The notes: generated by a model from the letters alone, not told the origin. A stretch of 45,540 nt of DNA from Bacteroidota bacterium (GCA_024277895.1 JAJRUH010000108.1:1-45540), one strand, 5' to 3'; positions 10,382-44,500 are shown, counted from the stretch's first letter. Made by a program: numbers and translations.

Positions 10382-11605
10382 GTGGATATATTCAAAAAAT
10401 TAGACACATCAAAAACCGATTTAGGAAAATATCAATCTTCCGTTCACGGATATATGACTTTCCCGAAATTAGAAGGAGAAATCGGTCCGATTATGACATT
10501 TCAAGGTAAAAAAGTAATTACTTGGAGTATTAACAATTATTTAGGACTGGCAAACTTGCCGGAAGTAAGAAAAGCAGACGGCGAAGCTGCCGTTGAATGG
10601 GGAATGGCTTACCCTATGGGAGCTCGAATGATGAGCGGAAATACTAAATATCATGAAGAATTGGAACAGAAATTAGCTGACTTTGTGAATAAAGAAAGCG
10701 GTTATCTTTTAAATTACGGCTACCAAGGAATGGTTTCTGTTATTGATTCTTTAGTTGACAGAAACGATGTTATTGTTTACGATTCAGATTCTCATGCCTG
10801 TATTTTAGACGGTGCAAGATTACATATGGGTAAACGTTTTGTTTTTAAACATAACGATATGAAAAGCCTCGAAAAACAATTAAAACATGCAACTCGTGTT
10901 GCCAACAGAAATAACGGAGGTGTTTTGGTTATTACAGAAGGTGTTTTCGGAATGGAAGGTGATTTAGGTAATTTGAAAGGCATCACTGATTTAAAAGACA
11001 GATACGATTTCAGATTATTTATTGACGATGCCCACGGTTTCGGAACAATGGGAAAAACCGGTGCAGGAACGGGAGAATATTACGGTGTTCAGGATAAAGT
11101 AGATATTTATTTCGGAACTTTTGCAAAATCTATGGCAGGAATAGGTGCTTTTGTTTCCGGACCTAAACAAGTCATTGATTATTTACGCTATACGATGCGT
11201 TCACAAATTTTCGCAAAATCATTACCCATGCCTATGGTATTCGGTGCTATGAAACGTCTTGAGATTATAAAAAGAGATACAAAATTAAAAGATAAATTAT
11301 GGTTAATTGTTAATTCTTTGCAAAAAGGTTTGAAAGAAAACGGATTTAATCTCGGAGAAACAGAATCGCCTGTAACACCGGTATTTTTTGACGGCGATGA
11401 TACCTTAGTTATTAAAATAACTAAAGATCTTCGTGAAAATTACGGTATCTTCTGTTCGGCAGTTGTATATCCCGTAATTCCGAAAGGAAAAATTATGTTA
11501 CGACTTATCCCCACAGCATCTCACGAGCAGGAACATGTTGATAAGACAATTGAAGCATTTAAAGAAATTCAGAAAAAATTACAAAATAATTTTTATTCAA
11601 ATTAA
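10382..11605 (+). CDS. Alpha-oxoamine synthase family PLP enzyme (serine palmitoyltransferase / cysteate acyltransferase-like), GTG start
   Basis: NNYLGLANLPEV, DSDSHACILDGARLHMGKRFVFKHND, FIDDAHGFGTMGKTGAGTGEYYG, GTFAKSMAGIGAFVSG. Confidence 0.85.
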   Translation: MDIFKKLDTSKTDLGKYQSSVHGYMTFPKLEGEIGPIMTFQGKKVITWSINNYLGLANLPEVRKADGEAAVEWGMAYPMGARMMSGNTKYHEELEQKLADFVNKESGYLLNYGYQGMVSVIDSLVDRNDVIVYDSDSHACILDGARLHMGKRFVFKHNDMKSLEKQLKHATRVANRNNGGVLVITEGVFGMEGDLGNLKGITDLKDRYDFRLFIDDAHGFGTMGKTGAGTGEYYGVQDKVDIYFGTFAKSMAGIGAFVSGPKQVIDYLRYTMRSQIFAKSLPMPMVFGAMKRLEIIKRDTKLKDKLWLIVNSLQKGLKENGFNLGETESPVTPVFFDGDDTLVIKITKDLRENYGIFCSAVVYPVIPKGKIMLRLIPTASHEQEHVDKTIEAFKEIQKKLQNNFYSN

Positions 11606-18142: not shown

Positions 18143-19075
18143 TTATTCCAAATCCTTAACTATATCTTTGGTGAATTTTGCAAGCGGACGTTTATGTATT
18201 TCATCATCCGAAATATAATTGCCGAAAATAATTCCTTTTAATTGTTCGTAATTTTTGAATAAAGTGCCTTCATATTGTTTGAATAACGTTTCGATATATT
18301 CTTCGGAATACATATATTGTTTCTTTATCAGTTCAAGTGCAATATCGGAATGTTCTTTATATATTTCATTTAATCTGAAAGTTGTAATTGTATTTTTTGT
18401 TTTTGTGTCATTTTTATTTTTCCCTTTTAATTCAATATCAATAACATCTTTTGAATAATAAAAACTTGGTTTGGTAATTTTTAAATGAAATTTTGCAAGC
18501 GAATTAAAATCATCTTCATAAGGGTGCAGATGTTCTTCTTTTGCAAAATCTTTTGTATGCTTAAATTTACTGTTACAAATTGAACACGAAGGAATTAAAT
18601 TGTAAAATGATAATGCCAAAAACGGATAACGTCCTTTATCGTAAAAATGGTCAAAAGTTGCCAATACTCTCGCTTTTCCTTTTTCTGTGTCTTCAAATTT
18701 AAAGATATATTCTCTGTTGCAATACGGGCAAACTGTTATTCCTAATTTATCAACTAATTCTGTTGCATTATAACCGTTCATGAATTTTTTTGTTGAATTT
18801 GCAAAGCCGTTATATAATTTTAATATTTTTTTTATATAATCCGGAGAGTTTGAATTTGTTGTTTTTTTTTTGATTAATTTTTTTAATTGCCGGGGGTTAG
18901 CTTTAATAACATATTCAAAATTTATTTCAAAATTTATTTTTAACCACTTATTAATATTGTCTAAATCTTTTTTCGAAAATCCTGTTGTTGTTGTTTTTCT
19001 TTCAAAATATTCAATAATTGCATTATAATGCTCTTTTACAAAGTCGCTTATATTCGGATGTGTTATTTGTATCAT
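18143..19075 (-). CDS. ptuB: HNH endonuclease, PtuB-like (Septu system)
   Basis: CPYCNREY...FDHFYDKGRYPFLALSFYNLIPSCSICNSKF zinc-HNH motif; 4-bp overlap with the upstream ATPase. Confidence 0.78.
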   Translation of the reverse strand: MIQITHPNISDFVKEHYNAIIEYFERKTTTTGFSKKDLDNINKWLKINFEINFEYVIKANPRQLKKLIKKKTTNSNSPDYIKKILKLYNGFANSTKKFMNGYNATELVDKLGITVCPYCNREYIFKFEDTEKGKARVLATFDHFYDKGRYPFLALSFYNLIPSCSICNSKFKHTKDFAKEEHLHPYEDDFNSLAKFHLKITKPSFYYSKDVIDIELKGKNKNDTKTKNTITTFRLNEIYKEHSDIALELIKKQYMYSEEYIETLFKQYEGTLFKNYEQLKGIIFGNYISDDEIHKRPLAKFTKDIVKDLE

Positions 19076-21045
19076 TTTTTATCGTCTTCTAACAGATTTA
19101 TTTTTTCTTGTATCTCTTTCATTTGTTTTTTTAGTGAAATTATGTCAGTTTTATTTGTATTTTCAATTTTATATTTCAACATTTTTTGTAGTTGATTTTT
19201 TAAAATCGGTTCACCTATAATATTTATTATTGCTTGTGCTTCATAAATATTTTTTATTTCTGTATTTTCTTTTTCGTTTAAATAATCAATAACACTTTGT
19301 ATTTTTTCTTCCGCAAATTTCCCGATTAAACCGTCATTCATAAAAAATGAATTTGTAAACAGAGTATGAATATTTGCTCCGAAAGTTTCTTTTTGCTCAA
19401 TTTCCGGAATAACTATACAATTTCCGTTTTTATCTCTATCAAGAAAAATAATATGTTCTTTCGGAAGGTCGGAAACTATAAAGGGTGAGTGAGCCGTTAT
19501 TATTATTTGAACGGGTTTCTTGTCAAATATTATCGGTAAAACTTCTGTTAAAAGATAAATATTTTGTTTTGACCATTCAGGATGCAAGTATAAATCAATT
19601 TCGTCAATTAAAATCAGATATGTTTCTGTTTTTATTTGTTTTTCTTTTACTTCTTTATCAATTTGTTCTTTTGCTTCCGATAATCTTGCAAATAAATTTA
19701 CAAAAGCCAGTTCTCCGGAACTTAATCTCCAACCAAAATTCAAGTAATTATTAATTTCTGTATTATATGTTAATGACTTTTTATAAATTTTAATAATTTT
19801 TGTGAAATATTTCCTTGGTACTTTAAAATTTATATTGTCATCAGATATATCATTAAAAACTATTTCATTTGACGGAATACTTTTTACTATATCAAGCATT
19901 TCTGAAAAAGTATTTAAATTATTTTCTTCAAATAACTTCTTACTATTTTTCAAAAGCATTTCATAAGTAGCTGTTTTATTATTGATTAAATCATAAACAT
20001 CATTAATGTATTCAAAATAATCTGTAAGTAAACGAGAGTCTTCTTTTATCAGTATTTCTAATTCTTTTTTCTTTTCTTCAAACGTATTATCTTTAATAGA
20101 ATTAAATAAATCTCTAATATCTGTAAGTAGATTTCTAATTTGTTTTTTCTTTGAGTATGTATTGTTATTAGGATTTAAATTATTAAAAATTGAGTTTACT
20201 TTAATTTCAAAGGATAAAATAAAAAATAGATAAATTAATCTTAAAATTAACTGTGTATGTTCAGAATATGTGTATATCTTTCTATATATTTCATTACTAA
20301 TCATAGAAGTACCTATCCGTAGATTTATGTTCAATATATATATGTTTGATGATATTGTTATGTTTTTTATTCCGTTTTCAGTTCCTAAAATTTTAGTTAT
20401 TTTATCAGAATATTCCTTTTTATCTAAAAAATTATTAATACTTTCTAAATTTTGAAACCAATATTCTTGTATGATAGAATAATGACTTTTTGTTTTATTT
20501 TTTTCTTGAATTTCTGTTAACTTATAATTTAAAGAAACATCTTTTGATGATGTATAAATTGATTTGGGATTAAAAAAATCATAAGGATTAAAAGTATTAG
20601 ACAAATAAATGACTGCAATTTCAGACTTTGGGAGTTTTTCATTCTCATAGCCATTTTCATTTCTGAGTACGATTTTCTTAAAAGATGTATTTATTATTAT
20701 ATTTTCGTGATGTAAAATAATTATTTCAGAATTTTCTTTTATGATAACGAAATGTAATAAATTGTAATTCTTCACCAATTTTGTTAAAAATTCTAACAAA
20801 CTACTTTTCCCACTTCCGTTTTTCCCTACAATTCCTGTAATATTTACAATACTGTCTCCGAAAAAATTATCAGGTAATCTGTAATCTTTTTTTTCATTAT
20901 GTATAAGTTCTCCGCCTGTAATCTCTTTTTTTTTATTATTGCCGTTGTTTTCGGGGATAAACTCAAAATGATGTTTAGGACTGAAGTTAAAGCCCTGTTT
21001 GTGTATATTTTTATAATCTTCAATCCAAATATATAAGAGTTCCAT
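19072..21045 (-). CDS. ptuA: AAA/SMC-like ATPase, PtuA-like (Septu system)
   Basis: Walker A GIVGKNGSGKSSLLEFL, signature LSSGELAFVNLFARLSEA, Walker B YLILIDEIDLYLHPEW, H-loop TAHSPF. Confidence 0.8.
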   Translation of the reverse strand: MELLYIWIEDYKNIHKQGFNFSPKHHFEFIPENNGNNKKKEITGGELIHNEKKDYRLPDNFFGDSIVNITGIVGKNGSGKSSLLEFLTKLVKNYNLLHFVIIKENSEIIILHHENIIINTSFKKIVLRNENGYENEKLPKSEIAVIYLSNTFNPYDFFNPKSIYTSSKDVSLNYKLTEIQEKNKTKSHYSIIQEYWFQNLESINNFLDKKEYSDKITKILGTENGIKNITISSNIYILNINLRIGTSMISNEIYRKIYTYSEHTQLILRLIYLFFILSFEIKVNSIFNNLNPNNNTYSKKKQIRNLLTDIRDLFNSIKDNTFEEKKKELEILIKEDSRLLTDYFEYINDVYDLINNKTATYEMLLKNSKKLFEENNLNTFSEMLDIVKSIPSNEIVFNDISDDNINFKVPRKYFTKIIKIYKKSLTYNTEINNYLNFGWRLSSGELAFVNLFARLSEAKEQIDKEVKEKQIKTETYLILIDEIDLYLHPEWSKQNIYLLTEVLPIIFDKKPVQIIITAHSPFIVSDLPKEHIIFLDRDKNGNCIVIPEIEQKETFGANIHTLFTNSFFMNDGLIGKFAEEKIQSVIDYLNEKENTEIKNIYEAQAIINIIGEPILKNQLQKMLKYKIENTNKTDIISLKKQMKEIQEKINLLEDDKK

Positions 21046-28860: not shown

Positions 28861-29331
28861 TTATTTAACAATATCGCAATCTTGCATAATTACGTCTTCA
28901 TACATTTCCAAATCTTCGTCATAAGATGCACCGAGCGTTATAAATCCTTTTACTTTTATCTTATCTCCGATTTTTAAATTTTTTATTCGTTCGCCGGCTT
29001 CGGGAAGAAAAGTACAACTTACTCCTGCACTTTCTCCGGCATCTTTTAATAATATAACGGTTTGATTATTTTGATCTTTCGATACGGAAAAGATTGTACC
29101 TTTTATAATAAGAACTTTTGAATTTCCGTCTTTTTCCAAATATTTATTATTAGCCGCAGCATTATCTTTTAAATATTCATTAACTATTTCTTTCGAACTT
29201 AATGTTGCAAATACTTCTGTTTTCTGTACGTCTCTGTGAGGCATAAAAAAAAGATAAACAGGATAAATTGCTGCGAGAACAGCGATAATTACTACGATTA
29301 AAATAATTTTTTTTGTTTTTAATTTTTTCAT
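28861..29331 (-). CDS. Membrane-anchored OB-fold (tRNA_anti-like) protein
   Basis: N-terminal TM; VLIIKGTIFSVSKDQNNQTVILL...GDKIKVKGF; internal ATG at 29331 preferred over ORF start 29361. Confidence 0.7.
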   Translation of the reverse strand: MKKLKTKKIILIVVIIAVLAAIYPVYLFFMPHRDVQKTEVFATLSSKEIVNEYLKDNAAANNKYLEKDGNSKVLIIKGTIFSVSKDQNNQTVILLKDAGESAGVSCTFLPEAGERIKNLKIGDKIKVKGFITLGASYDEDLEMYEDVIMQDCDIVK

Positions 29332-29435
29332 GTGTCTATTATTATTGATTTTAAATGTCAAAATTGTTATATCTTTTCAGATTGTGCTCATTTATTAAAT
29401 TTTATGCAAATATGCCGTATCTTTTTTTCTTTTAT

Positions 29436-29451: not shown

Positions 29452-29514
29452 AATAATCATTATTTTATAACATATATTTGCAACAATAAAAATTTTTAAC
29501 TAAAATTGAACAAT

Positions 29515-30075
29515 ATGAAAAAAATAAGTTTAATATTTACAGTACTGTTTATGAGTATGAGTTTATTCGCTCAAAAAACATATATTACAAAAAATGCCTA
29601 TGCTAAATTATTTTCGCATACTGTTGCGGAAGATATAAGTGCCGAAAACTTTAAAGTAATTTCTAAAATAAATGCTGAAACCGGCGATTTAATAGTTTCC
29701 GTGCCGGTTCAAAGTTTTACTTTCGAAAAAGCTTTAATGCAAAAACATTTTAACCAAGCTAATTTTATGGATTCTAAACAATTCCCTAAAATTAAGTTTA
29801 AAGGAAAATTTGATGTTTCAAAAGTTAATTTTACAAAAGACGGGAAATATCCGGTTACCGTTTCCGGAAATTTAACAATAAGAGCTGTTACAAAACCGCA
29901 TTCTGCAGAAGGTACAATAGTCGTTAAAGACGGAAAAGTTTCCGCAAATTCCGTATTTATCGTGAAAAATATTTTTCAATACGGTGTAGGAAAACCAAGC
30001 AAAAAAAGTAAAAAAGAAAATGTAGCAGAAGACATAAAAATCACATTTAAAGCAAATTACGAAGAACAGAATTAA
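29515..30075 (+). CDS. YceI family protein
   Basis: Signal peptide; MDSKQFPKIKFKGKF, YPVTVSGNLTIRAVTKP. Confidence 0.9.
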   Translation: MKKISLIFTVLFMSMSLFAQKTYITKNAYAKLFSHTVAEDISAENFKVISKINAETGDLIVSVPVQSFTFEKALMQKHFNQANFMDSKQFPKIKFKGKFDVSKVNFTKDGKYPVTVSGNLTIRAVTKPHSAEGTIVVKDGKVSANSVFIVKNIFQYGVGKPSKKSKKENVAEDIKITFKANYEEQN

Positions 30076-30094: not shown

Positions 30095-30158
30095 ATCATT
30101 GCCGACTAAGATTTTTGAGTTTTAAGAGTTCTCAAAAATCCGGCAATGATTCTTTTTT
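30095..30158 (+). terminator. Long bulged hairpin (two 10-bp stems) plus T-run, between yceI-like and cdo-like genes
   Basis: ATCATTGCCG-actaa-GATTTTTGAG-loop-CTCAAAAATC-CGGCAATGAT-TCTTTTTT. Confidence 0.85.
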
Positions 30159-30169
30159 AAAGAAACATA

Positions 30170-30880
30170 ATGAATAAAATACCCGAAATATTAAAATATC
30201 TGATTAAAGAAATTCAGGAAGAAAAAAGTATTGATGCTTCTCGTGTTGTTGAATTTATGAAAAGAACAGATATTAAAGAAAATGAATTAACGAATTTTAT
30301 AAACTTTAACCATTCTGCAAAAGAAAGTTACGGAAGAAATATAATTTTTGACGGAGGTTTTTTTAAACTTATGCTTATGTCGTGGAATAAATATGATTTT
30401 ACGGCAATTCACGACCACGGACAAGTGGAATGGGGAGCAGTTAAATCTTTCGGAACTGTTTCAAATATTGAATATTCATTTGAAAATAATAAATTAAAAA
30501 TTATTAAAAACGAAATTTTAAATAAAGGAGACGTAACTGCCGTAACATCGGATTTAATTCATCAGGCGGGAAATAATACCGATAAAGCTGTTTTAACAAT
30601 GCACTTGTACGGCTCTGATAAAGTTAAGAATGATATCGGCTTGAATTCAAAAATCTTTGATACCGTTGATAACAGAATTATATACACAACAGGTGCGGCT
30701 TATTTAAAATTACCTTCCGATATTATTATACGGAAAAACGAAAACTTAGATGTTGATATTGCAACTTTTGAATTTGATAAATCAGTGAGATTAAATTTCT
30801 TCAACAAAAACAAAAAAATATTTGCAAATGAACTTTATAAATTAAATAAATTAAATAAATTGAACTATGAATACTATTAA
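30170..30880 (+). CDS. Cysteine-dioxygenase-type cupin
   Basis: YGRNIIFDGGFFKLMLMSWNKYDFTAIHDHGQVEWGAVKSFG, third His in DLIHQAGN. Confidence 0.75.
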   Translation: MNKIPEILKYLIKEIQEEKSIDASRVVEFMKRTDIKENELTNFINFNHSAKESYGRNIIFDGGFFKLMLMSWNKYDFTAIHDHGQVEWGAVKSFGTVSNIEYSFENNKLKIIKNEILNKGDVTAVTSDLIHQAGNNTDKAVLTMHLYGSDKVKNDIGLNSKIFDTVDNRIIYTTGAAYLKLPSDIIIRKNENLDVDIATFEFDKSVRLNFFNKNKKIFANELYKLNKLNKLNYEYY

Positions 30881-31466
30881 AAAAATATTCTTGCCGATAA
30901 TTATAATATTATTCTTTTCGACAGGAAGTATAACGGCTCAAAAGCAATTGCCGAACGGCACAAAAGCACCCGAAATAAATACAATTGACCATTTTAACAG
31001 AGAAATCGGCTGGAAAGAAAAATTAAAAAAAGGACATGTAGTGGTTGTTTTTTATCGCGGTCAGTGGTGTCAATATTGTAATTTATATATGTATCATCTT
31101 GCAGATTCGCTGTCAATGATAACGGATTTGGGTGCAAGTTTAATTGCCGTTACACCCGAAAATAATGAAAATATTGACGAAACCGTTGAAAAAACAAAAG
31201 CACATTTTAATATAGTTTATGATGTTGGGCACGAAATTATGGACAGCTATAAAGTTACTTGGCATGTAAGCAAGTTTGCTCATATTTTCTATAAATTAAG
31301 AGGAATTGACTTGAATAAAGCAAGTGACGGTACCGACAGAGCCTTACCCGTTCCGGCAACATACATTATCGGGCAGGACGGCAGAATAAAAGCCGGATAT
31401 TTTAATAAAAATTACAAACTGCGAATGCCGATAAGCGAAATTGTAAAAGAACTTAAAAAACTCTGA
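30867..31466 (+). CDS. Exported peroxiredoxin/AhpC-TSA-like thioredoxin-fold protein
   Basis: Signal peptide; VVVFYRGQWCQYCNLYMYHLAD. Confidence 0.85.
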   Translation: MNTIKKIFLPIIIILFFSTGSITAQKQLPNGTKAPEINTIDHFNREIGWKEKLKKGHVVVVFYRGQWCQYCNLYMYHLADSLSMITDLGASLIAVTPENNENIDETVEKTKAHFNIVYDVGHEIMDSYKVTWHVSKFAHIFYKLRGIDLNKASDGTDRALPVPATYIIGQDGRIKAGYFNKNYKLRMPISEIVKELKKL

Positions 31467-31472
31467 AAATAA

Positions 31473-32897
31473 ATGCAGAAAAATTATCAGGATATTTTTA
31501 ATAAAGCTGCGGATATTATTGCAGAATATCTAAGAGACTCCGATTCGAATATGTCTTCGACAGTAAATTATCAAAGTCCGAAAGAGTTAAAAAAATTGCT
31601 TGATTTTAAAATTGAAGATGAAGGAATATCTTACGACATATTGTTTAATTATCTTGAAAAATATCTGCAATATAGTGTAAATACGAGAAATAAACAGTTT
31701 TTTAATCAACTTTATGCCGGAACAAATATTCCCGGTTTTTTGGGCGAAGTTTTTTCCGCCGTAAGCAATACGTCAATGTACACATACGAAGTTGCACCGG
31801 CAGCTACGCTGATTGAAAAATATTTAATTAAAAAAATGTGCAATATTGCCGGCTTTAAGAACGGAAACGGTATTTTTGTTACCGGCGGAAGTAATGCTAA
31901 TCTTATTGCGATGTTTTCGGCTCGCAATAAAATTTTACCGCAAGGAAAAACGGAAGGGATGCAAAATGCTCCGAAATTTACGGCTTTTGTTTCCGACCAA
32001 GCTCATTATTCTTTCGGAACGGCAGCTAATTTACTCGGTATCGGTTCGGATGCTTTAATAAAAGTTAAATCGGATAAATACGGAAAAATGATACCCGAAG
32101 AACTTGAAAAAGAAATTCTTGCATCAAAACAAAGAAACGAAATACCTTTTTTTGTTGCCGGAACTGCCGGAACAACCTTACTCGGAGCTTTTGACCCGAT
32201 TTCTGACATTACGGAAATTGCAAAAAAACATAATTGCCGGATACATATTGACGGCTCTTTCGGCGGCTCGGTTATTTTAAGCTCAAAATATAAATATCTT
32301 TTTAAAGGTATTGAAAATACAGATTCGTTCACCTGGAATCCGCATAAACTTATGAACGTTCCTTTAGTAACTTCCGTTATTTTGCTTAACGAAAAAAATA
32401 TTTTGCGAAGTAATTTAACGAAACTTTCAACAGATTATATTTTTCATGAAAATGAAGACGAAAATTGCGATTTAGGTGAAATTTCAATTCAGTGCGGAAG
32501 AAAAGTTGATGCTTTAAAATTGTGGTCGGCTTGGAAATTTTACGGTAACAAAGGATATGAAAAACGAATTGATGATTTGTTTGAAGTTGCCGAATATTTC
32601 GAAACAAAAGTTAAAGAATTTGAGGATTTGGAATTAATGTCGGAAAGGCAAACATTAACGGTTTGTTTCAGGTATAATCCCGGAAATATTGAAGATTTGA
32701 ATAAAGTAAATTTGAATATCAGGGAAAAATTACGAAAATCCGGAAAAAGTATGGTGAATTACGGTTATATCGGACAAGATTTAACAATTCGTTTTGTTGT
32801 TTCAAATGCCGATGTTCAAAAATCGGATATTGACATATTTTTTAAGAATTTTTTTGAAACGATAAAACAAATTAAGGATGAAAAATTCGCTTCATAA
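31473..32897 (+). CDS. Group II PLP-dependent amino-acid decarboxylase (glutamate/cysteine-sulfinate/aspartate decarboxylase-like)
   Basis: FVTGGSNANLIAMFSAR, HIDGSFGGSVILS, SFTWNPHKLMNVPLVTS (PLP lysine), IQCGRKVDALKLW. Confidence 0.88.
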   Translation: MQKNYQDIFNKAADIIAEYLRDSDSNMSSTVNYQSPKELKKLLDFKIEDEGISYDILFNYLEKYLQYSVNTRNKQFFNQLYAGTNIPGFLGEVFSAVSNTSMYTYEVAPAATLIEKYLIKKMCNIAGFKNGNGIFVTGGSNANLIAMFSARNKILPQGKTEGMQNAPKFTAFVSDQAHYSFGTAANLLGIGSDALIKVKSDKYGKMIPEELEKEILASKQRNEIPFFVAGTAGTTLLGAFDPISDITEIAKKHNCRIHIDGSFGGSVILSSKYKYLFKGIENTDSFTWNPHKLMNVPLVTSVILLNEKNILRSNLTKLSTDYIFHENEDENCDLGEISIQCGRKVDALKLWSAWKFYGNKGYEKRIDDLFEVAEYFETKVKEFEDLELMSERQTLTVCFRYNPGNIEDLNKVNLNIREKLRKSGKSMVNYGYIGQDLTIRFVVSNADVQKSDIDIFFKNFFETIKQIKDEKFAS

Positions 32898-33636
32898 AGA
32901 TTCGATTATTATTTTAGCTTGGCCTCAAACTCCGGTGAGCTCCGTAGGAATGTGGTACGATACCGTGACTAAATTCTTGGGTTTGTTAAAAAACGACCGC
33001 TACAAAGCCGGACATGCTGCCGCAGTTTTGGTTAATCATAAAACAAAAAAACTTCATTATTTTGATTTCGGTCGCTACCATATGCCGCAAAAATTCGGAA
33101 GAGTAAGAGACGAGCAAAGCGACCCGCAATTAAAAATTACCGTAAAAGCAAACTTGTCGGCAGAAGATAAATTGTTGAATATCAGCGAAATACTTCGTAT
33201 TGTAAATTCAAATAAAGAATGTCACGGACAAGGCGTTTTATATGCTTCGGCTCTTGAAAATATCAGTTTTGAGAAAGCATATAAATTTGCAAAAGATTTG
33301 CAAAATTCCGATGCGATAAATTACGGACCTTATGATTTAAACGGTTCAAATTGTTCGCGGTTTATCGCTTCTCTGGCAATTGCGGGAAATCCCGAATTCG
33401 ATATTCGTTTCAGATTAAAATTTCCGATTTTGTTAACTCCCTTACCGAAAGGAAATGTAATTATTTGTAATACAGAGTATTATTCCGTAAAAGGAAGTGA
33501 AATTAAGAAACACAAAGTAAAGTTTTCGGATTATTTAAGAAATTTTGTTTTTCCCGGTTTCAGAAAGCCCGATTTAAGTTTCGGCAAAAAAGATACAAGC
33601 ATAAATAAAGTTCATAACATTAAAATCCATGCATAA
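32878..33636 (+). CDS. Uncharacterised protein (Bacteroidetes-type DUF, possibly DUF6695); His-then-Cys motifs suggest a permuted papain-like fold
   Basis: YKAGHAAAVLV...HYFDFGRY...GPYDLNGSNCSRFIASLA; 20-bp overlap with upstream gene. Confidence 0.7.
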   Translation: MKNSLHKDSIIILAWPQTPVSSVGMWYDTVTKFLGLLKNDRYKAGHAAAVLVNHKTKKLHYFDFGRYHMPQKFGRVRDEQSDPQLKITVKANLSAEDKLLNISEILRIVNSNKECHGQGVLYASALENISFEKAYKFAKDLQNSDAINYGPYDLNGSNCSRFIASLAIAGNPEFDIRFRLKFPILLTPLPKGNVIICNTEYYSVKGSEIKKHKVKFSDYLRNFVFPGFRKPDLSFGKKDTSINKVHNIKIHA

Positions 33637-33913
33637 TAAGCCCGATAACATACTTGAAAATTCAAAATATTTGCCCGGAACGGGAGCAAGTGCATTTTTT
33701 CATATTGAAGCAACCGAAAATGATACTCTTTTCAGAATAAGGCGATTTAACGAAAACGGAAAACTTGATTGCGACCAAATTTTCCGTCTTCTTACACCCG
33801 GTTTTGAAATTTATTCCGACTTTGAAATTACTTATGTTTCTCATTGTGCTAAATGCACTGTTTTACAGAAAAATAAGAAATTTATTTTTGTCAGTCTTGC
33901 TTCAGTATCTTAA
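33629..33913 (+). CDS. Small hypothetical protein, probable partner or split C-terminal domain of the preceding ORF
   Basis: 94-aa ORF, 8-bp overlap with preceding gene. Confidence 0.65.
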   Translation: MHNKPDNILENSKYLPGTGASAFFHIEATENDTLFRIRRFNENGKLDCDQIFRLLTPGFEIYSDFEITYVSHCAKCTVLQKNKKFIFVSLASVS

Positions 33914-36900
33914 TATATTTATTCCCGGTATTTCTTATAATTCTTACGAAATAAATTCCTGCAGGGTTGTTTTGTAAATTAATTTTTATAGGTTCCGAAA
34001 CAGGTTTTATTTCTTGTATTATTTTTCCGTTAATATCTGAAATACAAATCTTTAAAATAGATTCCGAATTATCGACTTCTAAAAAGAAAATGTCTTTTGA
34101 AGGATTGGGATAAATTTTTATTTTTTGCCCTTTAATCAAATTTACGGAAACTTCGTTTTCAATATTTACATTTATAGTATCTGAATTTTCGCAAGTATTA
34201 TTATCCTCTACTTTAACCCAAAATTCATAATTTCCGGCACCTAAATTAGAACCTTCCAAAAGTAAAGTTTGTTCGCTTGAACCGTCATTCCATAAATATG
34301 AAACAAATCCGGCTCCGGCATCAAGCAGCAAAGTATCATTTACGGTAATGGTTGTATCGTTTCCGAGATTAATTTCCGGCAAAGTGTTAATATTTACGGT
34401 TGCCGTTCCCGAAAAATCGGTTCCCGTGCAATTTGCATCCGAAAGAGCCGTAATTTGATATGTGCCTGCATCGGATACAACAAAAATATAGGGATTATCC
34501 GATGTTGTTTCGCTGAATGAGTTTGTTCCGTCGGTATATGAAATATCCCAAGGAGGCGTACCCGTTAAGTTTATCGAAATGTCGGAGGTTTCGCCTTCGC
34601 AAATTTCGGCATCTCCGGATATTGTTGCCGTAGGCAAATCATTGATATTCACGGTAAATAAGCTGTTCAATTCTAATGAACATCCGTTTGCCGGATTTGT
34701 TGCCGAAATATTAAATGTCGTTGTTTCCGTCAATGTTCCGGTCGGCAAATTGATTGTTCCGGCATTTCCGGTAACTGCCGTTCCGACAAGTGAATTATCA
34801 GCATTGTTTCGTAATTGATACTCAACAAAATTTTCTGTATTGTTGAGAACAATATTTGTGTTTCCGCTTTCGCAGAAATCAGCCTGTTCGAGGGAAGCAT
34901 TAAAAATTTTATTTTCTTCATATAAATAAGAAACCTCTTCGGGTAATAATTCTCTTCCGTAAACTCGTATTTCATCAACAGTTCCTCTGAAGTACATACT
35001 TGTCGGAACATTCGGAAACGAAGCATCAATTTCGTCGTAAGCAATTTTCCACCAACCTGTGTAATTTGCTCCTTGCGTAACAGTTGCATTTTCGGCTTTT
35101 AATTGTCCGTCAACATATAATTTCATTCCCGATGTTGATAAAGAAGCCGTAAACAGATGCCAATTGTCGTCGTTATAACTTTCTGATGTTGAAATTGTTT
35201 TAGCTGTTCCGTCAAGAAGTCCGAAATTTACTTTTCCGGCATTATCCATATAAATCATTCTGTCGCTCACAGAACTTGCTCCCCCTTGTGTATCTCCCAA
35301 GCCAAAAATAAAACCTCCTGAATCGGTATTTGTTTTTACCCATAAAGAAAATGTAAATGTATTCGGATTATCAAATGAGTTTGTTGTAGTTCCTGCATCC
35401 CAATTTCCGTTAAAATACATTGCTTTGTTCCAATTTCCGTGTCTGTCTTCAGGAAAAGTCCAAGACCCGAAATAATCGTTTCCGTTTCCGCTTAAATCTG
35501 TATTGTCATATACGTCGCAAGAAAACCAACTTACTAAATTTTCGGAATTCACTCGTGCAAGTTCTCCTGTGTCTGCCGTAGTCGGGTTTGCCGTTACTTG
35601 TTTTGTGTTTGAATTTATTGAACAGCTTATATTTGTAACTTTTGCGGTATATATTCCGGTTTCTTCGGCAATATAAGAAAGTGAAGTTTCTCCTTCAATC
35701 GGATTTCCGTTTTTCATCCATTGAACTTCATATCCTGTTCCGGTATTCAGATTTAGGGTAACATTATTCCCTTCACAAAAAGTTGTATCTCCGGCTGCAG
35801 TTATATCTGCATTGCTCGGCGGCGGATTTATGCGAATCGTAATAGTTTCTGAAAATACCGAACATCCGTTTTCTGTTACTTCTACTTTATATTCTCCGGC
35901 TTCCGTTGCATAATAATTTGAATTTGTTTCACCGTCAATTATAACATTATCTTTATACCACCGGATTTCAGGATAAGCCCAGTCGGTGTATAAGCTAACA
36001 CCTTGTCCCGTGCATAAATCGGTATTGCCCCAATAGCTGATTTCGGGTTCGGGACAAGCACCCGGAGTGTTTACTTTTATTCCGTAATTACCTGAAACAC
36101 CTTCCTCTCCGTCAACAACAAAATAGTATGTAATTCCGGCATACATATTAAAAGAAGTTTGTGCGATTGTATCTTCCGGATTCCATATTCCTGCCATATT
36201 GATACAAGCATTTTCATTACAAGTTGATAAAATCAAAACTGTCAGGTTTCCCGGAATCTTTTCCGTAAATTCAAGCTTTGCCAAACCGTTATGCGTTGCT
36301 GAAATACTGTGAATCACTTCTTTATCGGTATATGTTCCCCAAGAATAATTATCAATATTATCTTGTCCGTCGGTTTCGGTATTTCCGAAGTACCAAACAT
36401 TATCTTCCAACGCAACCGAAGCGGAACAATCCATTATACCCGGAGCAATGATATCAACTGTCGCAGATTCGGTATTTAACAGCTCATCAGTTTCAATTAC
36501 TTCGTTATCGGCATCGGCAACAAAGAGAATATATTTCGTTCCTTCGGTTGCCGAAGCAGGTATTGTAATGCTTTGTGCGGTATTATATTCTGTTTTCGCA
36601 CTTAAAGCAGGAATGTTTACGGTTTCAAGAAGAATATCCGTGCCGTCTGAAATATTATCATCAGAATAATAAATTTTTGTTTTACTTGCCGGTGCAGAAC
36701 TGTTTCCTATATTTTTAATCGTAAAAGAAACATAAGCTAAATCACTTGTTTGACGAATATTCGGAGCAACGGTTTGGTCGGTAATAATTAAATCGGGTTT
36801 TTCGTCAGGAATATTTACGGTTAAGGTATAACTTCCTTCTGAACCGTATTTTCCGTCAACGACTATCAAATAAGTTCCGGGTAAGGTGTTATCTGCAACG

Positions 36901-38279
36901 GCAATTGAATCTCCGTATGCCGTTAAACTGTCTTGATTACATTCTGATAAAATAAAAACATCTAAATTATTTCCGTTTAAGTTTGTTATTGAAGCTCTTA
37001 TTCTTCCGGGATATAGAGTTGTTATTTGATGCACGACTTCTTTTCCTGTTTCATTATAATTTATACCTCCGTATGTGTTTGCAATATTTGCCGAACTTAC
37101 GGTAGTTCCGGAATAAGGCACGTTTTCAGACAAAATAACCGGACTTGAACAATCTAATCCCGGATAAGTATTTTTCGGTTGCATTCCTACAATTGCCCCT
37201 TGGCTGTTTGTAAAATTATATCCGCCGGGTGTTAAATCATTTAAATAAAAATATCCGTTATATGAACCTCCCCAGCCCCAATTAAAATGGAAAAAATCAG
37301 TTCCCTGATAACCGTCAACATTAAACGCATGTCCTCCCGTACCTCTGCCTTGATAATACATCGGGCGACCGGAATCTATTTCCGTTCTCAGCATTCGAGC
37401 CCAATTTTCTTCAGTGTAAGAATATTTGCTTGTCAGAATTAAATTCGGGGAATATTTAAAATAAGTTTTCAGAGCAGATGCCGCAGCAAATGAATAAGCA
37501 CCCGAACCGGACGGTGAATAATTCATATTAACGGAAACTCCGCAATGATAAATTAATTTTGAGATTTCTGCATTTCCGCTTCCGTCGGGCATATTTGACC
37601 AATCATAAGTTGTATTTTTAAAATCAACTGTTTGTTCTCCGTAAACCGAATGTGTATAAGTATGAGAACTGTCTCCTGTTGCCGGGTAATTGTGAAATTT
37701 CATTGATTGAGCCATTGCCGTTGCAACACAACCTGCCCAAACATATCCGCAAGGACCTGAAGCATCCGCAGGGCATAGTGAATTATAACCGCAGCCCTGA
37801 TTCCAAGTTGTTGTAAGCAGCGGTGAAACGTCTTTTGTACTTATTTTTTTCGGATGAAAATCCGGATTTGAATAATATTGCCACAAATCCGTAATTTTTT
37901 TATCGGCTTTTATTTTTTGAGTAACGGCAAAATTAATTTGTTTTTTTAACGACAGCATCCAATCAATAAAAGCATCGGGCTTTTTGTTTGAAATATTATA
38001 ACGACTTTCGGTTGAATATGCCAAAACGGGGTAAATATTATCATTGCCGGAAATTATGATAAATCCGACAGAGTTTTTCAGGTTAAAGATATAGAATAAA
38101 TTTTCTCCGGATTTTGATTTTTCTGAAAGAACTAATTCTAATTCCGGTTGTTTTGTGCTTTTTATTTTTTCGGAAAGAAAATTTTGCGCAACTGTTTTTG
38201 CTTTTTTTATCTCAATTTTAACAGCAGATACATTAAAAAATATAAAAAATACGAAAGCAAGACTGATAATTTTTTTCAT
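33891..38279 (-). CDS. T9SS-secreted C10 (streptopain-like) cysteine protease with PPC, CARDB, Ig-like and LamG-like modules
   Basis: Signal peptide, Spi-like propeptide, WNQGCGYN...AGCVATAMAQ (Cys), GGHAFNVDGY (His), NWGWGG; C-terminal IYPNPSKDIFFLEVD...GIYFVRI...KILKQD. Confidence 0.92.
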   Translation of the reverse strand: MKKIISLAFVFFIFFNVSAVKIEIKKAKTVAQNFLSEKIKSTKQPELELVLSEKSKSGENLFYIFNLKNSVGFIIISGNDNIYPVLAYSTESRYNISNKKPDAFIDWMLSLKKQINFAVTQKIKADKKITDLWQYYSNPDFHPKKISTKDVSPLLTTTWNQGCGYNSLCPADASGPCGYVWAGCVATAMAQSMKFHNYPATGDSSHTYTHSVYGEQTVDFKNTTYDWSNMPDGSGNAEISKLIYHCGVSVNMNYSPSGSGAYSFAAASALKTYFKYSPNLILTSKYSYTEENWARMLRTEIDSGRPMYYQGRGTGGHAFNVDGYQGTDFFHFNWGWGGSYNGYFYLNDLTPGGYNFTNSQGAIVGMQPKNTYPGLDCSSPVILSENVPYSGTTVSSANIANTYGGINYNETGKEVVHQITTLYPGRIRASITNLNGNNLDVFILSECNQDSLTAYGDSIAVADNTLPGTYLIVVDGKYGSEGSYTLTVNIPDEKPDLIITDQTVAPNIRQTSDLAYVSFTIKNIGNSSAPASKTKIYYSDDNISDGTDILLETVNIPALSAKTEYNTAQSITIPASATEGTKYILFVADADNEVIETDELLNTESATVDIIAPGIMDCSASVALEDNVWYFGNTETDGQDNIDNYSWGTYTDKEVIHSISATHNGLAKLEFTEKIPGNLTVLILSTCNENACINMAGIWNPEDTIAQTSFNMYAGITYYFVVDGEEGVSGNYGIKVNTPGACPEPEISYWGNTDLCTGQGVSLYTDWAYPEIRWYKDNVIIDGETNSNYYATEAGEYKVEVTENGCSVFSETITIRINPPPSNADITAAGDTTFCEGNNVTLNLNTGTGYEVQWMKNGNPIEGETSLSYIAEETGIYTAKVTNISCSINSNTKQVTANPTTADTGELARVNSENLVSWFSCDVYDNTDLSGNGNDYFGSWTFPEDRHGNWNKAMYFNGNWDAGTTTNSFDNPNTFTFSLWVKTNTDSGGFIFGLGDTQGGASSVSDRMIYMDNAGKVNFGLLDGTAKTISTSESYNDDNWHLFTASLSTSGMKLYVDGQLKAENATVTQGANYTGWWKIAYDEIDASFPNVPTSMYFRGTVDEIRVYGRELLPEEVSYLYEENKIFNASLEQADFCESGNTNIVLNNTENFVEYQLRNNADNSLVGTAVTGNAGTINLPTGTLTETTTFNISATNPANGCSLELNSLFTVNINDLPTATISGDAEICEGETSDISINLTGTPPWDISYTDGTNSFSETTSDNPYIFVVSDAGTYQITALSDANCTGTDFSGTATVNINTLPEINLGNDTTITVNDTLLLDAGAGFVSYLWNDGSSEQTLLLEGSNLGAGNYEFWVKVEDNNTCENSDTINVNIENEVSVNLIKGQKIKIYPNPSKDIFFLEVDNSESILKICISDINGKIIQEIKPVSEPIKINLQNNPAGIYFVRIIRNTGNKYIKILKQD

Positions 38280-38527
38280 TTTTATTGGTTTTTATTTTTC
38301 AGACAGATTAACCGTAAGGAAAGTTGCATCTGTTAAAAATGTTATGTAATAAGTATTTAGAAATTAGGTAGAAAAAGCTCTTTAAAATATAAATGTTTCC
38401 GAGTTCTGAAAATGCAACCTGTGAGTTGAAAAACAGGTCTTATCTTTTTAAGATTCCGGTATTTATTATTATTTTTACTTACTTTTTCTTATTTGAAAAA
38501 CTTTTAGAAACTTTTAATATATTTTCT

Positions 38528-41500
38528 ATGAAAAATTTTACTAAAAAATTTACAACTTTAATTACGTTAACTTTTCTTTTAACTTTATTCTCTCAAATTG
38601 GTTGGGGGCAAACTTGGACAGAAGATTTTACATCCGGAACTTATTCTGTTACTCTCGGAGGGGAAGGGAATAACGGTACTGCTGATTATTTTCAGATTAC
38701 GGACGGAACTAATATAAGCATAACTTATACGGGAAATACAGGGAATTTTTTCGCTGCACAAGATATTGACGACGGAGGTTGGTCCGGAAGTGCCAGTCCT
38801 TCTCAACTTACCTGGACAGGTATCAATATTAGCGGATATACCGGGCTAAGTTTTTCAGGACTTTTTGCGTCAAGTGCAACAGATAAAATTGATGATAATG
38901 ATTATGTTAAAGTTGAAGTAAATATTGATGGAGCAGGATGGGTTACAATATTAGAATTTGAAAATGACGGAAGCCAATACAATACATATTTTTTAGAAGA
39001 TACAGATTTTGACGGAACAGGCGACGGAACACAATTAACATCAACATTTACAAGTTTTTCTAAAAATATCTCAGGAACAGGAAATTCTCTTGATATAAGA
39101 ATAACTGTTGCTGTTAATGCCGGAGGTGAAGACATCGCTTTTGACACATTTCAATTATTCGGAACTTCTTCAAACGACAACGACTCTCAAGTATCAGCAT
39201 CATCAACTTTAACAGAACCCGCAACAATTTCGTCATTAGTTAATTCTTCAAACGGTGTTCAGGTTTTTGATTTTACATTTACCGATGCCGGTTCCGGAGA
39301 CGGTGTTGCAACAATTATCGACCAACTTCAAATTACGCAAGGCAGTGCAAACGGAGTTGCAGATTGGACAAATGCAATTGCCGGAGCAGTTCTTAACGGA
39401 CCAGATGTAACAAATCTTGCAGGAACCGTTAATGCAACGGATATTACATTTGCCGGAAATGATATGATTTCAATTGCAGACGGAGGTAATGAAACATATG
39501 TATTATCAATTTGGCTTAATACCGATTTATCCGGAATAACTGATAATGATATTCTCGAATTTGCAATGGATTATACAAATATTACCACAGATGCAAGCGG
39601 CTCGTCATTCGGGTCGGGAGCTCCCGAAAGCGGTGATAATAACATTGCAATAGATGTTGATGCAACCGAACTTCGTTTTGCTCAACAACCTACGGATGCA
39701 AATATTAACGATTGCATGTCTCCTGACGTTTCGGTTGAAGCAACAGATGCAAACGGAAACAGAGATTTGGATTTTACGGAAACAATAAGAATAACTTCTG
39801 CGGGCACATTAACTTCTTCACCTGTTGATGTTGCGGCAGTTAACGGTTTGGCAACATTCAGCGGAGCAAATTGCATAGAGCATTCGGCAACAGGAACAAA
39901 TTTAACTTTAAATGCCGAAAGAGCATCAACGGCAGATTGGGATGTTACAAGTAGTCAATTTGATATTACGGATATTAATGCTTGCGGACTTGAAGAATTT
40001 AACGGCGGAAGAACGGCTCCTGCAGGATGGACTTTTACAAATATATACGGGACATATACCACATCAGGCAATTACGGAAATTCTTCTCCTTCATTACAAA
40101 TGGATGCAACAGGAGATATTATTGAAACGGCAACCGTTACATCTCCTTCTCAGTTGACTTTTTGGATAAAAGGACAAGGAACCGATGCTTTATCTGCTTT
40201 GCTCGTTGAAGGATGGGACGGGAGTTGGAATACTATTGAAAATATCACAAATTTACCCACTACCGGAACAACTAAAATATATACTACAGGATTATCTTCA
40301 TATACAAAGTTCAGATTTTCATATACTAAAAGTGCCGGGAATTTGGCATTTGATGATGTTGACGTAACCTGCGGAAGTTGTGCCGAACCGACTAATGATG
40401 CAACGGCTCTGGATTTTCCTTCAAAAACTTCAACATCAATAAATTTATCTTGGACTAACGGAAACGGAGGGAACCGAATTGTAATATGCAGAGAAGGTGC
40501 GGCGGTTTCTTTTACCCCTTCGGATAATAATACATATACGGCAAATCCGGATTATTCGGCAGGAACAGAAGTAGGAACTGTAGGAGAAGGCAATAAAGTT
40601 ATTTATAACGGAAGTGCTTCAACAACCACTGTTACCGGATTAACACCGGGTACAACTTATTATTTTGAAATTTATGAATACGGTTGCAGCGGCGGTGCAG
40701 AAGATTATTTAACAAGCGGAACACCTGCCGAAGGCAATGAAACAACATTACCCGAAAATGTAAGTAATTTTTCTCTTACGTGTATTACAAATACAACGGC
40801 AACTTTAACTTGGACGATACCCGCAGGAGGATTTGACGGAATATTGGTTGTAGCCAGAGAGAGTACATTAGCACCGAGCGATCCTTCTTGTGACGGAGTT
40901 TGGCTGACTTCTCCGAGTACAGATTTTTCAACGGCAACAACTTATTGCAGTAATACTACAGACAGTCGATATGTTTATAACTCAACAGGTTCAACAGTAA
41001 CAATTACCGGCTTAACACCCGGTGCCGATTATGTATTTAAAGCATTTACATATAACGGAAGTGATTGGACAAGCGGAACACAAACAGCAACAATTGCCGA
41101 GGTAAAAAATGTTACGGGAGAAAATATTGCTCCCGCAAATCAGCAAATTTCAGTTATGTGGAATAATCCTGCAACATGTTATGATGAAATACTTGTTATA
41201 GCACATAAAGGCGGGTCAATAACAGCAGGAGCCGGACCTGCAGACGGAAATGACGGCTCCGGATATGTTGCCGATGCTTCGGAACCGTTTTCCGGAACTG
41301 ATTTAGGAACCAACGATTTTGTTGTTTATAAAGGTGCACAAACTGATTTTGATGCAACCGGCTTAGAAAACGGAACTCAATATTGTTTTAAAATATTTGT
41401 CAGAAAAGGAACAGAGTGGAGTTCCGGGGTTGAAATATGTCAAACTCCTGCAGATGTTACCGTTTTTAATCCGGGAGAACTTATAATCATAGGATTTGAT

Positions 41501-44500
41501 TCAAATGTCGGCGGAGGGAGAGACAGTATATTTTTAACTTCATTAGTAGATATAAAACCCGGAACGGAATTTTTATATGTAAACTCAAGATATGAAGCCG
41601 GTGCTCCGGCTAATGTCAGAACTGCCGAATGGCACGGCGGAGGTGATGACCCTGATGCCGACCCGGGGATTTTTAAAATATCATACAGCTCAACAGCTGC
41701 TTCAAGCATTTCGGCAGGCGCAGTTATTTCTTTCAGCACAACCGGTTATAAAGCGGATTATATAAAAGTTAACGGCACACTAAATGCCGATTTCTCAAGT
41801 TCAAATATTGTCGGTTCTGCGAATATTCATGCAACAGACGGTGATCAAATTTGGTTGCTTCAAGGCAATTTTACGGATCAAGGAACTTATTACACACTTG
41901 ACGGGAATGTGCTTTGGGGCTTAACAAATAATATTGATTGGGTACCCGTAGATCAGCCGGTTTCTGATGCTTCAGACGGAACAGGAAGAGAATCCCGATT
42001 AAATCCTGATTTGGAATGTTTCAATTTGTCAATGCCTACCGGTAAAGGGTATGCTTTATATTTAAACAGCTCTGACCACAATAATTCCAAACGTAATTTA
42101 CTCCTTGCAATAATGAACGGAGGAAATTGGAATGACGGTGTCGGTGATGCAACAATGAATTTTAATGCGGACTTTACTTCGCCTTACGAAGTTGATTCAA
42201 TCGGCAAACCTTTTACGGTAACAGTAAGCGGAAGCACTGACGGAACTTGGCTCGGAGGAGCTTCAGCTTATGTAAACGACTGGTTTTCTTGTATGAATTG
42301 GGAAGGTTTGACTGTTCCCGATTCAACAGTAGATGTAACTATTCCGAATACAACCGATAAACCGATTATTGACCACACATCAGGAAAAGCAGCGAAATAC
42401 AGTTATATTGCAGAATGTAATAATATTACAATTGATAATAATTTTTTAACTATAGAAGGTTCATCATTTGATACCTTATTTGTACACGGGAATTTAACAA
42501 TTCAAAATTCCGGAACTTTGGATATGAATTCCGGAAATTCAAATGACGGATTAATTTATATATCCGGGAATTGGGATAATCAGGCAACTTTTGATGCAGG
42601 AAAAGGAACAGTTGTTTTCAACGGAACAAATTCTCAAACTATAACAACATCTGCAACAAGCGAGACTTTTAATAATTTAAGAATTAATAATTCAAATTTG
42701 CTCGGTGTTGCGACAAATAACAATCTTATTATTAACGATACGCTTTCTCAAGAAAACAGTTTACTTAACTTGAACGGAAAAAATATTGAAATGAAAGGAG
42801 TTTATGAAAATACAAACGGCTATTTTGAAGGTGATGTAAACTCTGATTTTGCAATAAATGCCGATAACGGAAATATCGACAGCATATATTTCAAAAACGA
42901 TTTTAATCTTAATAATTTCTCAATTGACAGAACCGGAAAAAAAGCCGTTTTAATGACAGATTTGTATGTAAACGGAAATCTTACGGTTACTTCCGGAAAT
43001 GTTACGTTTACCTCCGGAAACAATTATGATATCACGGGAAGTTTGATTAATACACCGGAAACCCCTGATGCAATTATTATAAAATCGGATGCTGCCGGAA
43101 CAGCTTCTGTTATACAAAATACAGGTGCGGTGCCGGCAACCGTCGAAAGATATTTATCCGGAAATAATTGGCATTATATTTTTGCACCTTTAACTCAAAT
43201 TGACACATCTGTATTTACGGTTGCCCCTTGGGGAGATATAAATCCGAATGTATATTTTTATAATGAATCTGTTGCCGATTTTTGGGCAGGCACAACAATT
43301 TATAATCCCACAGGTTGGACTCATGCAAACGGAGTTTCTTCTTCCGGTTATATGCAAACCGACAGAGGATATATAAATTATTTTACGGCAGATAAAGTAT
43401 ATTCGCAATCAGGCGGAAATTTAACGGATGCAAATAAAAACTTTACATTATCATATACCGATAACGGAACAGGCACCGAGCCGAATACGGGAACCGATTG
43501 GGACAACTTTGAAGGTTGGAATTTACTGGGAAATCCGTATGTATCGGCAATAGATTGGGATAATGCTGGTTTAGACAAAACATACATTGATAACTTTATA
43601 TATTATTATGATGATATTCAAGAAAAATATTTATGTTACGGCGGAACTCCTCCTTGGGATAACAGCGGCATAACAATAAACGGCGGAACAAAATATATCC
43701 CGGCAGGGCAAGGATTTTTTGTAAAGGCATTATCAAGCGGAAACGGACAAACATTTTCTATTCCTAAAGCAGCTCGAATACATAATGCACAACCGTTTTA
43801 CAAATCGAATAAGCAAAATAATAACCTTTTAAGATTACAAATAAGAAAAGATAACTATACCGATGAAACCGTAATAAGAACATTTCCTGCGGAATACGGC
43901 ACTACCGACGGTCATGATGCAAACTATGATGCGTATAAAATGTTTACGTGGAATAATTTAAGACCTCAATTATATTCGCATACACCCGATAACAGTAACT
44001 TTTTTGCGGTAAATACCTTTCCGGAAATAACAACCGACAAAGAAATACCTCTCGGAATATATATCGGCGAAGCAGGTCAATATTCAATCGATATGACGGA
44101 AAACGCCTTTTCCGATATGCACATTTGGCTTGAAGACAAAACAAATAACGTAAATACGAATCTTTTAACTCAAGATTCATACACATTTAATCAATCGGCA
44201 GAAACAAATGATAACAGATTTTTCTTACATTTTCAAAAAAATACAAAACCGATTCTGAATTCAAATATTCCCGACCAAACAATTCCGGTTAACGAAATGT
44301 ATGAATATTATTTACCTGAAAATTTATTTACCGACAATGATTTTGAAGACAATCTTACGATTACCGCAAAATCCGAATCCGGTGAAAATTTACCCGATTG
44401 GCTGACTTTCAATTCCGAATTAAAACAATTTACGGGTTTGCCGACGGAAATACAGACATTAAATATTATCGTAACCGCAACCGATATTTTCGGAGCCTAT

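What the first reader, a model, noticed from the sequence alone, without database searches (positions are those of the whole stretch)
30170..33913. Candidate cysteine to hypotaurine operon with unstudied members
Cysteine-dioxygenase-like cupin, exported peroxiredoxin, group II PLP decarboxylase and two small unknowns have overlaps or gaps of -14, +6, -20 and -8 bp, implying one translationally coupled operon. Dioxygenase plus decarboxylase is the cysteine-sulfinate route to hypotaurine, rare in Bacteroidetes. With the sulfonolipid-like cluster in the same window this hints at a sulfonate-centred metabolism.
Basis: partly seen in the sequence, partly recalled or inferred. Interest (0 to 1): 0.65.

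Follow-up and report, generated by a model that had tools for sequence, protein, structure and literature searches.

The report
Hypotaurine operon with toxin-fold partner gene
This stretch is a real, conserved bacterial operon that most likely turns cysteine into hypotaurine/taurine, and in many Bacteroidota it carries a third, unstudied gene whose fold has so far been known from bacterial toxins and lipid-modifying enzymes.

Summary
The cupin is an Arg-type cysteine dioxygenase (CDO) with all iron and substrate residues. The decarboxylase belongs to the GAD/CSAD/GADL1 group, with the non-glutamate pocket Y-S-Y (GADL1-like; CSAD is F-S-Y). In an even sample of 395 Bacteroidia genomes this decarboxylase group and CDO co-occur in 16 genomes (1.6 expected) and are neighbours in 11. 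So cysteine to cysteine sulfinate to hypotaurine is well supported, but neither new (Agnello 2013) nor especially rare. The 'small unknowns' are one split protein: a TseH-type permuted NlpC/P60 cysteine enzyme plus a DUF6695 domain, fused in most relatives. It follows the decarboxylase in 36 of 54 loci; its catalytic His and Cys are invariant in 62 homologues. The family also sits beside TANGO2/DinB genes, and a 2026 paper placed it among conflict toxins; here it looks metabolic. Its reaction is unproven; a lipid/amine acyltransferase or hydrolase is most likely. The window also holds a genuine sulfonolipid gene set (SulA with its diagnostic Lys281), so cysteate is a plausible second substrate. 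Verdict: a new variant of a known pathway.

The parts
30095..30158 (+). Terminator-like hairpin plus T tract between the YceI gene and the CDO gene; either the YceI terminator or a 5' leader element of the operon
   Evidence: MFE -27.8 kcal/mol, z -4.84; same structure in relative L031; single full copy in own genome; no Rfam match
30170..30880 (+). Cysteine dioxygenase, type I (Arg-type); H81/H83/H131 iron triad, R56, Y147
   Evidence: PF05995 32 bits, cut-off 23; B. subtilis CDO 3eqe match; the five residues invariant in 13 orthologues
30867..31466 (+). Exported AhpC/TSA-ResA-like thiol peroxidase/oxidoreductase (WCQYC), signal-like N-terminus; linked but not obligatory
   Evidence: PF00578 6e-19; Bcp/ResA structures; in the neighbourhood of 22 of 54 loci
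31473..32897 (+). Acidic amino acid alpha-decarboxylase of the GAD/CSAD/GADL1 group; PLP Lys292, loop Tyr322, pocket Y81-S101-Y103
   Evidence: PDB matches GAD67, GAD65, GADL1 and CSAD at 1e-95 to 1e-98; motif survey; tree
32878..33636 (+). TseH-like permuted NlpC/P60 (papain-like) enzyme, catalytic H46 (33013-33015) and C159 (33352-33354), no signal peptide seen
   Evidence: PF25218 2e-48; PDB 6v98 by sequence 5e-8 and by fold 3.5e-6, prob 1.00, using a fused orthologue; H and C 100% conserved in 62 homologues
33629..33913 (+). DUF6695 C-terminal domain as a separate ORF; fused to the preceding gene in most relatives
   Evidence: PF20405 4e-25; fusion survey
29506..30075 (+). YceI-family secreted protein, recurrent neighbour
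   Evidence: PF04264; in 13 of 54 loci
28861..29361 (-). OB-fold (tRNA_anti-like) membrane-anchored protein, recurrent neighbour
   Evidence: PF12869; in 11 of 54 loci
10382..11605 (+). SulA: cysteate acyl-ACP transferase of sulfonolipid synthesis, diagnostic Lys281 present
   Evidence: PDB 7u7h E=2.9e-172, Lys281 aligned in FAKSLPMP (criterion in PMC9304779)
246..1565 (-). Threonine-synthase-like PLP enzyme, candidate cysteate synthase
   Evidence: PF00291; threonine synthases best, cysteate synthase 9k3c at 1.2e-13

Best explanation
The five ORFs form one operon for cysteine catabolism to hypotaurine. Step 1 (inferred from conserved residues): cytosolic CDO oxidises cysteine to cysteine sulfinate with O2. 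Step 2 (inferred): the PLP decarboxylase removes the carboxylate of cysteine sulfinate to give hypotaurine; it probably also accepts cysteate, which the sulfonolipid pathway of the same genome makes, giving taurine, and perhaps some aspartate. Hypotaurine/taurine then serves as a compatible solute or redox-protective sulfur product. Step 3 (shown as genetic linkage only): a cytosolic two-domain cysteine enzyme, TseH-type permuted NlpC/P60 plus DUF6695, works with the decarboxylase, most likely as an acyltransferase or hydrolase on an acyl or amide bond. The exported peroxiredoxin-like protein is an accessory of a redox-stress gene neighbourhood, not a pathway step.
For: CDO: PF05995 above cut-off; 3-His triad, R56 and Y147 invariant in 13 orthologues. 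Decarboxylase: clade (SH-aLRT 99) beside GAD/CSAD/GADL1, apart from other group II enzymes; where the pocket could be read it is [Y/F]-S-Y in all loci but one (Y-A-H), never the GAD form S-N-F. Even sample of 395 Bacteroidia: 23 with this decarboxylase group, 28 with CDO, both in 16 (expected 1.6, Fisher 5e-16), 11 of them neighbours; a second group in that sample with the exact CSAD motif F-S-Y is paired with its own CDO. Own genome has panD, so beta-alanine does not depend on this enzyme. TseH/DUF6695 follows the decarboxylase in 36 of 54 loci, usually overlapping, including a remote decarboxylase clade; His/Cys invariant in 62. MscS channel or LysE exporter genes adjoin the decarboxylase/TseH pair in four distinct loci, fitting an osmolyte or exported amine.
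Against: No biochemistry. The pocket carries Tyr where CSAD has Phe; in mammals that residue goes with aspartate preference (GADL1; PMC5947694, PMC7367687). Seventeen surveyed genomes have the decarboxylase without adjacent TseH and 16 of these lack CDO, so the family may have other substrates. The TseH-CDO link in that survey (22/28 versus 1/17, Fisher 1.7e-6) rests on only 3 phylogenetically independent pairs and is inconclusive; in the even sample TseH and CDO are not significantly associated (p = 0.10). TseH/DUF6695 also occurs away from this pathway.
Confidence: 0.7

Rival explanations
1. The decarboxylase is mainly an aspartate decarboxylase (GADL1-like) making beta-alanine, and the CDO only disposes of excess cysteine.
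For: Pocket Y-S-Y equals GADL1, which prefers aspartate over CSA; many members occur without CDO.
Against: Own genome has PanD; all 15 CDO-adjacent members whose pocket was read carry Y-S-Y, so this pocket goes with a CSA supplier; strong co-occurrence and adjacency of the decarboxylase group with CDO.
Confidence: 0.15
2. The decarboxylase mainly serves the sulfonolipid branch, turning surplus cysteate into taurine.
For: True SulA and a cysteate-synthase-like gene in the same window; a CSAD enzyme is known to decarboxylate cysteate too (PMC12585060).
Against: The operon partner is CDO, which makes the sulfinate, not cysteate; the sulfonolipid genes are about 20 kb away; their co-occurrence with this decarboxylase elsewhere was not tested.
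Confidence: 0.12
3. The TseH/DUF6695 gene is an antibacterial effector that merely travels with this operon.
For: The TseH clade is described in conflict contexts and V. cholerae TseH is a T6SS effector with weak phospholipase activity (PMC12994826).
Against: Fixed position behind decarboxylase genes over deep divergences; no VipB sheath gene in 28 genomes searched, though the model may miss Bacteroidota-type T6SS; no PADLOC match; no immunity-like gene seen beside it.
Confidence: 0.08

Closest known systems
Bacterial CDO-CSAD taurine pathway (Agnello et al. 2013, doi 10.1021/cb400335k; full text not held, so its content is recalled and only the reference was seen)
   Same: Cysteine dioxygenase and a GAD-related decarboxylase with a non-glutamate pocket, linked in operons
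   Different: Pocket Y-S-Y instead of F-S-Y; a peroxiredoxin-like gene and a TseH/DUF6695 enzyme in the operon; Bacteroidota rather than the cyanobacterial example
Vertebrate GADL1
   Same: Identical three-residue pocket Y-S-Y and FFNQLYAG stretch
   Different: Bacterial clade of its own; linked to CDO
TseH / Tox-Act1 / LRAT / DUF4105 (Lnb) permuted NlpC/P60 enzymes (PMC12994826)
   Same: Catalytic His before Cys (permuted), TseH fold, NC motif at the catalytic Cys
   Different: Carries a DUF6695 domain; sits in a metabolic operon; no secretion system component found
Sulfonolipid synthesis (SulA, PMC9304779; 3-ketocapnine reductase, PMC11211663)
   Same: SulA with Lys281 and a threonine-synthase-like gene in the same window
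   Different: A separate cluster about 20 kb from the operon

Membership tests
Cysteine dioxygenase type I | PF05995 match above the curated cut-off | tested here: met
   32 bits against 23
Cysteine dioxygenase type I | 3-His iron site, Arg for the substrate carboxylate, Tyr157 equivalent | tested here: met
   H81, H83, H131, R56, Y147 invariant in 13 orthologues and aligned with B. subtilis CDO
Cysteine dioxygenase type I | O2-dependent conversion of cysteine to cysteine sulfinate | not testable with these tools
   needs an assay
Cysteine sulfinate decarboxylase (CSAD) | Group II PLP decarboxylase with PLP Lys and loop Tyr | tested here: met
   PF00282 3e-89; NPHK and DYIF aligned with CSAD/GAD; K292 and Y322 invariant in 12 orthologues
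Cysteine sulfinate decarboxylase (CSAD) | Substrate motif F-S-Y | tested here: not met
   Y81-S101-Y103, the GADL1 form; hence filed as CSAD/GADL1-like, not as CSAD proper
Cysteine sulfinate decarboxylase (CSAD) | Activity on cysteine sulfinate | not testable with these tools
   needs an assay
Glutamate decarboxylase (GAD65/67 type) | Substrate motif S-N-F | tested here: not met
   Y-S-Y
PanP / diaminobutyrate decarboxylase | NCBIfam equivalog score above the cut-off | tested here: not met
   182 against 606 bits; 188 against 900 bits
TseH-like permuted NlpC/P60 | PF25218 and permuted catalytic His...Cys | tested here: met
   164.8 against 27 bits; H46/C159 invariant; fold match 6v98, probability 1.00
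TseH-like permuted NlpC/P60 | T6SS effector association | tested here: inconclusive
   no PF05943 in 28 genomes, but the model may miss Bacteroidota T6SS
TseH-like permuted NlpC/P60 | Phospholipase or acyltransferase activity | not testable with these tools
   needs an assay
SulA (sulfonolipid) | Lys281 in place of the Spt alanine | tested here: met
   FAKSLPMP aligned with 7u7h (criterion from PMC9304779)

The most novel reading that the evidence does not exclude
The TseH/DUF6695 protein is an LRAT-like N-acyltransferase that moves a fatty acyl chain from a phospholipid to the amino group of hypotaurine or taurine, making an acyl-(hypo)taurine sulfur lipid in Bacteroidota alongside the capnine-type sulfonolipids. 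A toxin-fold family would then have a housekeeping lipid-synthetic role.
Probability: 0.13. Interest if true: 0.78.

Novelty: new variant of a known kind. Interest (0 to 1): 0.45.

Why it matters
It documents a bacterial cysteine-to-hypotaurine route in Bacteroidota with a GADL1-type pocket, and it gives a family so far discussed as antibacterial toxins (TseH/DUF6695) a conserved metabolic context. That makes its function directly testable: the likely substrates are named by the neighbouring enzymes. If hypotaurine or taurine is acylated, it would be a new sulfur lipid beside sulfonolipids.

Tried and rejected
Glutamate decarboxylase: rejected by pocket residues. PanP and diaminobutyrate decarboxylase: below curated cut-offs. 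Beta-alanine supply as the reason for the operon: PanD is present. T6SS or defence role for TseH/DUF6695: no VipB, no PADLOC hit. The hairpin 30095-30158 as a genome-wide repeat or known RNA family: only one full copy, and no Rfam match. DUF6695 alone by fold: no significant match; lipocalin-like hits are at noise level. Agnello 2013 full text: not held. Association of TseH with CDO corrected for phylogeny: inconclusive. Papers on bacterial N-acyl taurine lipids: one search gave nothing specific.

Full report
Observation. Among 21 same-strand junctions of the window only 8 are at or below 7 bp, and four of these are consecutive here. Pfam identifies CDO_I, AhpC-TSA, Pyridoxal_deC, TseH-like (PF25218) and DUF6695 (PF20405). 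A strong hairpin followed by a T tract (30095-30158; -27.8 kcal/mol, z -4.8) precedes CDO and is conserved in a relative whose decarboxylase is 78% identical. It most likely ends the upstream YceI transcript, so the operon is CDO to DUF6695.

Dioxygenase. The protein matches PF05995 above the curated cut-off and B. subtilis CDO in the PDB. H81, H83 and H131 (iron), R56 (substrate carboxylate) and Y147 are invariant in 13 orthologues; the roles are assigned from general knowledge of rat and bacterial CDO. This is shown at the level of sequence; activity is inferred.

Decarboxylase. The closest solved structures are GAD67, GAD65, GADL1 and CSAD (1e-95 to 1e-98); PanP and diaminobutyrate decarboxylase models score far below their cut-offs. 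At the three pocket positions that separate GAD (S-N-F), CSAD (F-S-Y) and GADL1 (Y-S-Y) in the alignments, the window has Y-S-Y. Of the 54 loci, 39 read Y-S-Y, 10 read F-S-Y, one reads Y-A-H, and four (L006, L047, L067, L078) could not be read with the pattern used. None is S-N-F. The use of these positions as a CSA motif is Agnello et al. 2013, whose text was not held and is recalled; independent support that Tyr (GADL1) versus Phe (CSAD) tunes aspartate versus CSA is in PMC7367687, and GADL1 has no activity on glutamate (PMC5947694). In a tree the window clade (SH-aLRT 99) stands beside the animal GAD/CSAD/GADL1 group and apart from other group II decarboxylases of the same genomes.

Pathway support from co-occurrence. 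In 395 Bacteroidia genomes drawn evenly, this decarboxylase group (at least 390 bits; the threshold was set by eye at a gap in the scores) occurs in 23, CDO (E below 1e-10) in 28, both in 16 against 1.6 expected (Fisher 5e-16). In 11 they are close neighbours, and one search showed one further pair (L159) with a different CDO. Ten of those eleven carry the exact CSAD motif F-S-Y and belong to a more distant group of decarboxylases, so the CDO-decarboxylase pair recurs in two arrangements. These counts are not corrected for phylogeny. PanD is present in the window's genome.

The third gene. ORFs 4 and 5 are halves of one protein that is a single ORF in most relatives. It follows the decarboxylase in 36 of 54 loci, usually overlapping it. 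L003/L032, L004/L033 and L007/L068 have identical or near-identical proteins and are probably the same genomes counted twice, which leaves 33 of 51. It also follows a remote decarboxylase clade in three genomes of one family. In the even sample, however, the four other genomes with a window-type decarboxylase (G454, G131, G348, G324) lack it. The catalytic His and Cys are invariant in 62 homologues, as are FDFGRY-type residues, two further arginines and an aspartate. An AlphaFold model of the fused orthologue L037 is confident (pLDDT 86.8, pTM 0.84) and its only significant PDB match is V. cholerae TseH 6v98. PMC12994826 places TseH (Pfam DUF6695) among permuted NlpC/P60 enzymes next to LRAT, DUF4105/Lnb and YiiX, reports phospholipase activity for TseH in one assay, and sees the clade in conflict contexts. 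Here it has no signal peptide by eye, no VipB gene in 28 genomes and no defence match.

Other contexts and limits. In the even sample 26 genomes carry DUF6695 above the cut-off; most are not beside a decarboxylase, and eight loci are beside TANGO2 (often with DinB, YceI, the OB-fold protein or an ECF sigma factor). YceI, the OB-fold protein, DUF4833, an AhpD-like protein and thiol-redox proteins recur around both kinds, so the wider setting is a redox or envelope stress island (inference). On the TseH tree the decarboxylase linkage needs at least five gains or losses. In a targeted survey of 45 genomes, CDO was present in 22 of 28 with adjacent TseH and in 1 of 17 without (Fisher 1.7e-6), but only three phylogenetically independent pairs exist and in the even sample the TseH-CDO association is not significant (p = 0.10). 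The link of TseH to the decarboxylase is therefore firmer than its link to CDO. L034 has a transglutaminase-like gene in the same place, L007/L068 an MscS channel before the decarboxylase, and L059, L060 and L076 a LysE exporter after TseH, which fits a small amine that is stored or exported; this is inference.

Sulfur setting. The window contains SulA with the diagnostic Lys281 (criterion from PMC9304779), a threonine-synthase-like candidate cysteate synthase, an SDR, and CysD/CysN/CysQ-like and PAPS-reductase genes. Cysteate is thus probably present in the cell and could be decarboxylated to taurine; a known CSAD enzyme does both (PMC12585060).

Verdict. A real operon; cysteine to hypotaurine is the best explanation (0.7). 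The pathway is known in bacteria; the pocket type and the conserved TseH/DUF6695 partner make it a new variant of a known kind. The function of the partner is the open and interesting question.

Noticed in passing
window 18143-21045 (-): AAA ATPase + HNH-like gene pair matching the PADLOC candidate defence system PDC-M62 (A and B; 9e-87 and 2e-76), Septu-like.
   Followed up: partly
window 8402-8863 (-): PAPS-reductase (CysH) ORF covers only profile positions 75-175; the N-terminal part is missing from this ORF, so the gene may be frameshifted or mis-assembled.
   Followed up: no
window 33891-38279 (-): C10 (streptopain-type) peptidase with Spi-like inhibitor propeptide, laminin-G and Ig domains and a Por secretion tail; convergent with, and overlapping by 23 bp, the end of the operon.
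   Followed up: partly
window 38393-44794 (+): 2133-aa secreted protein with purple-acid-phosphatase N-domain, fn3, Ig and Por secretion tail.
   Followed up: no
L110, L111, L117-L119, L121, L123, L128: TseH/DUF6695 beside TANGO2 (PF05742), often with DinB, YceI, OB-fold, ECF sigma and zf-HC2 genes: a second, decarboxylase-free context of the same enzyme.
   Followed up: partly
L148-L156, L159: A second group of F-S-Y decarboxylases, mostly divergently transcribed from a ~180-aa CDO; the NPH form of the motif around the PLP lysine is absent there.
   Followed up: partly
L031 4230-4520 and 6900-7800: In this close relative the CDO has no ATG at the expected start and TseH is split by a frameshift; assembly error or decay cannot be told apart.
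   Followed up: partly
L034 3580-4224: A transglutaminase-like gene takes the place of TseH directly after the decarboxylase.
   Followed up: no
L068 4586-5872; L059, L060, L076: MscS channel gene before the decarboxylase, or LysE exporter gene after TseH: hint of osmolyte release or amine export.
   Followed up: partly
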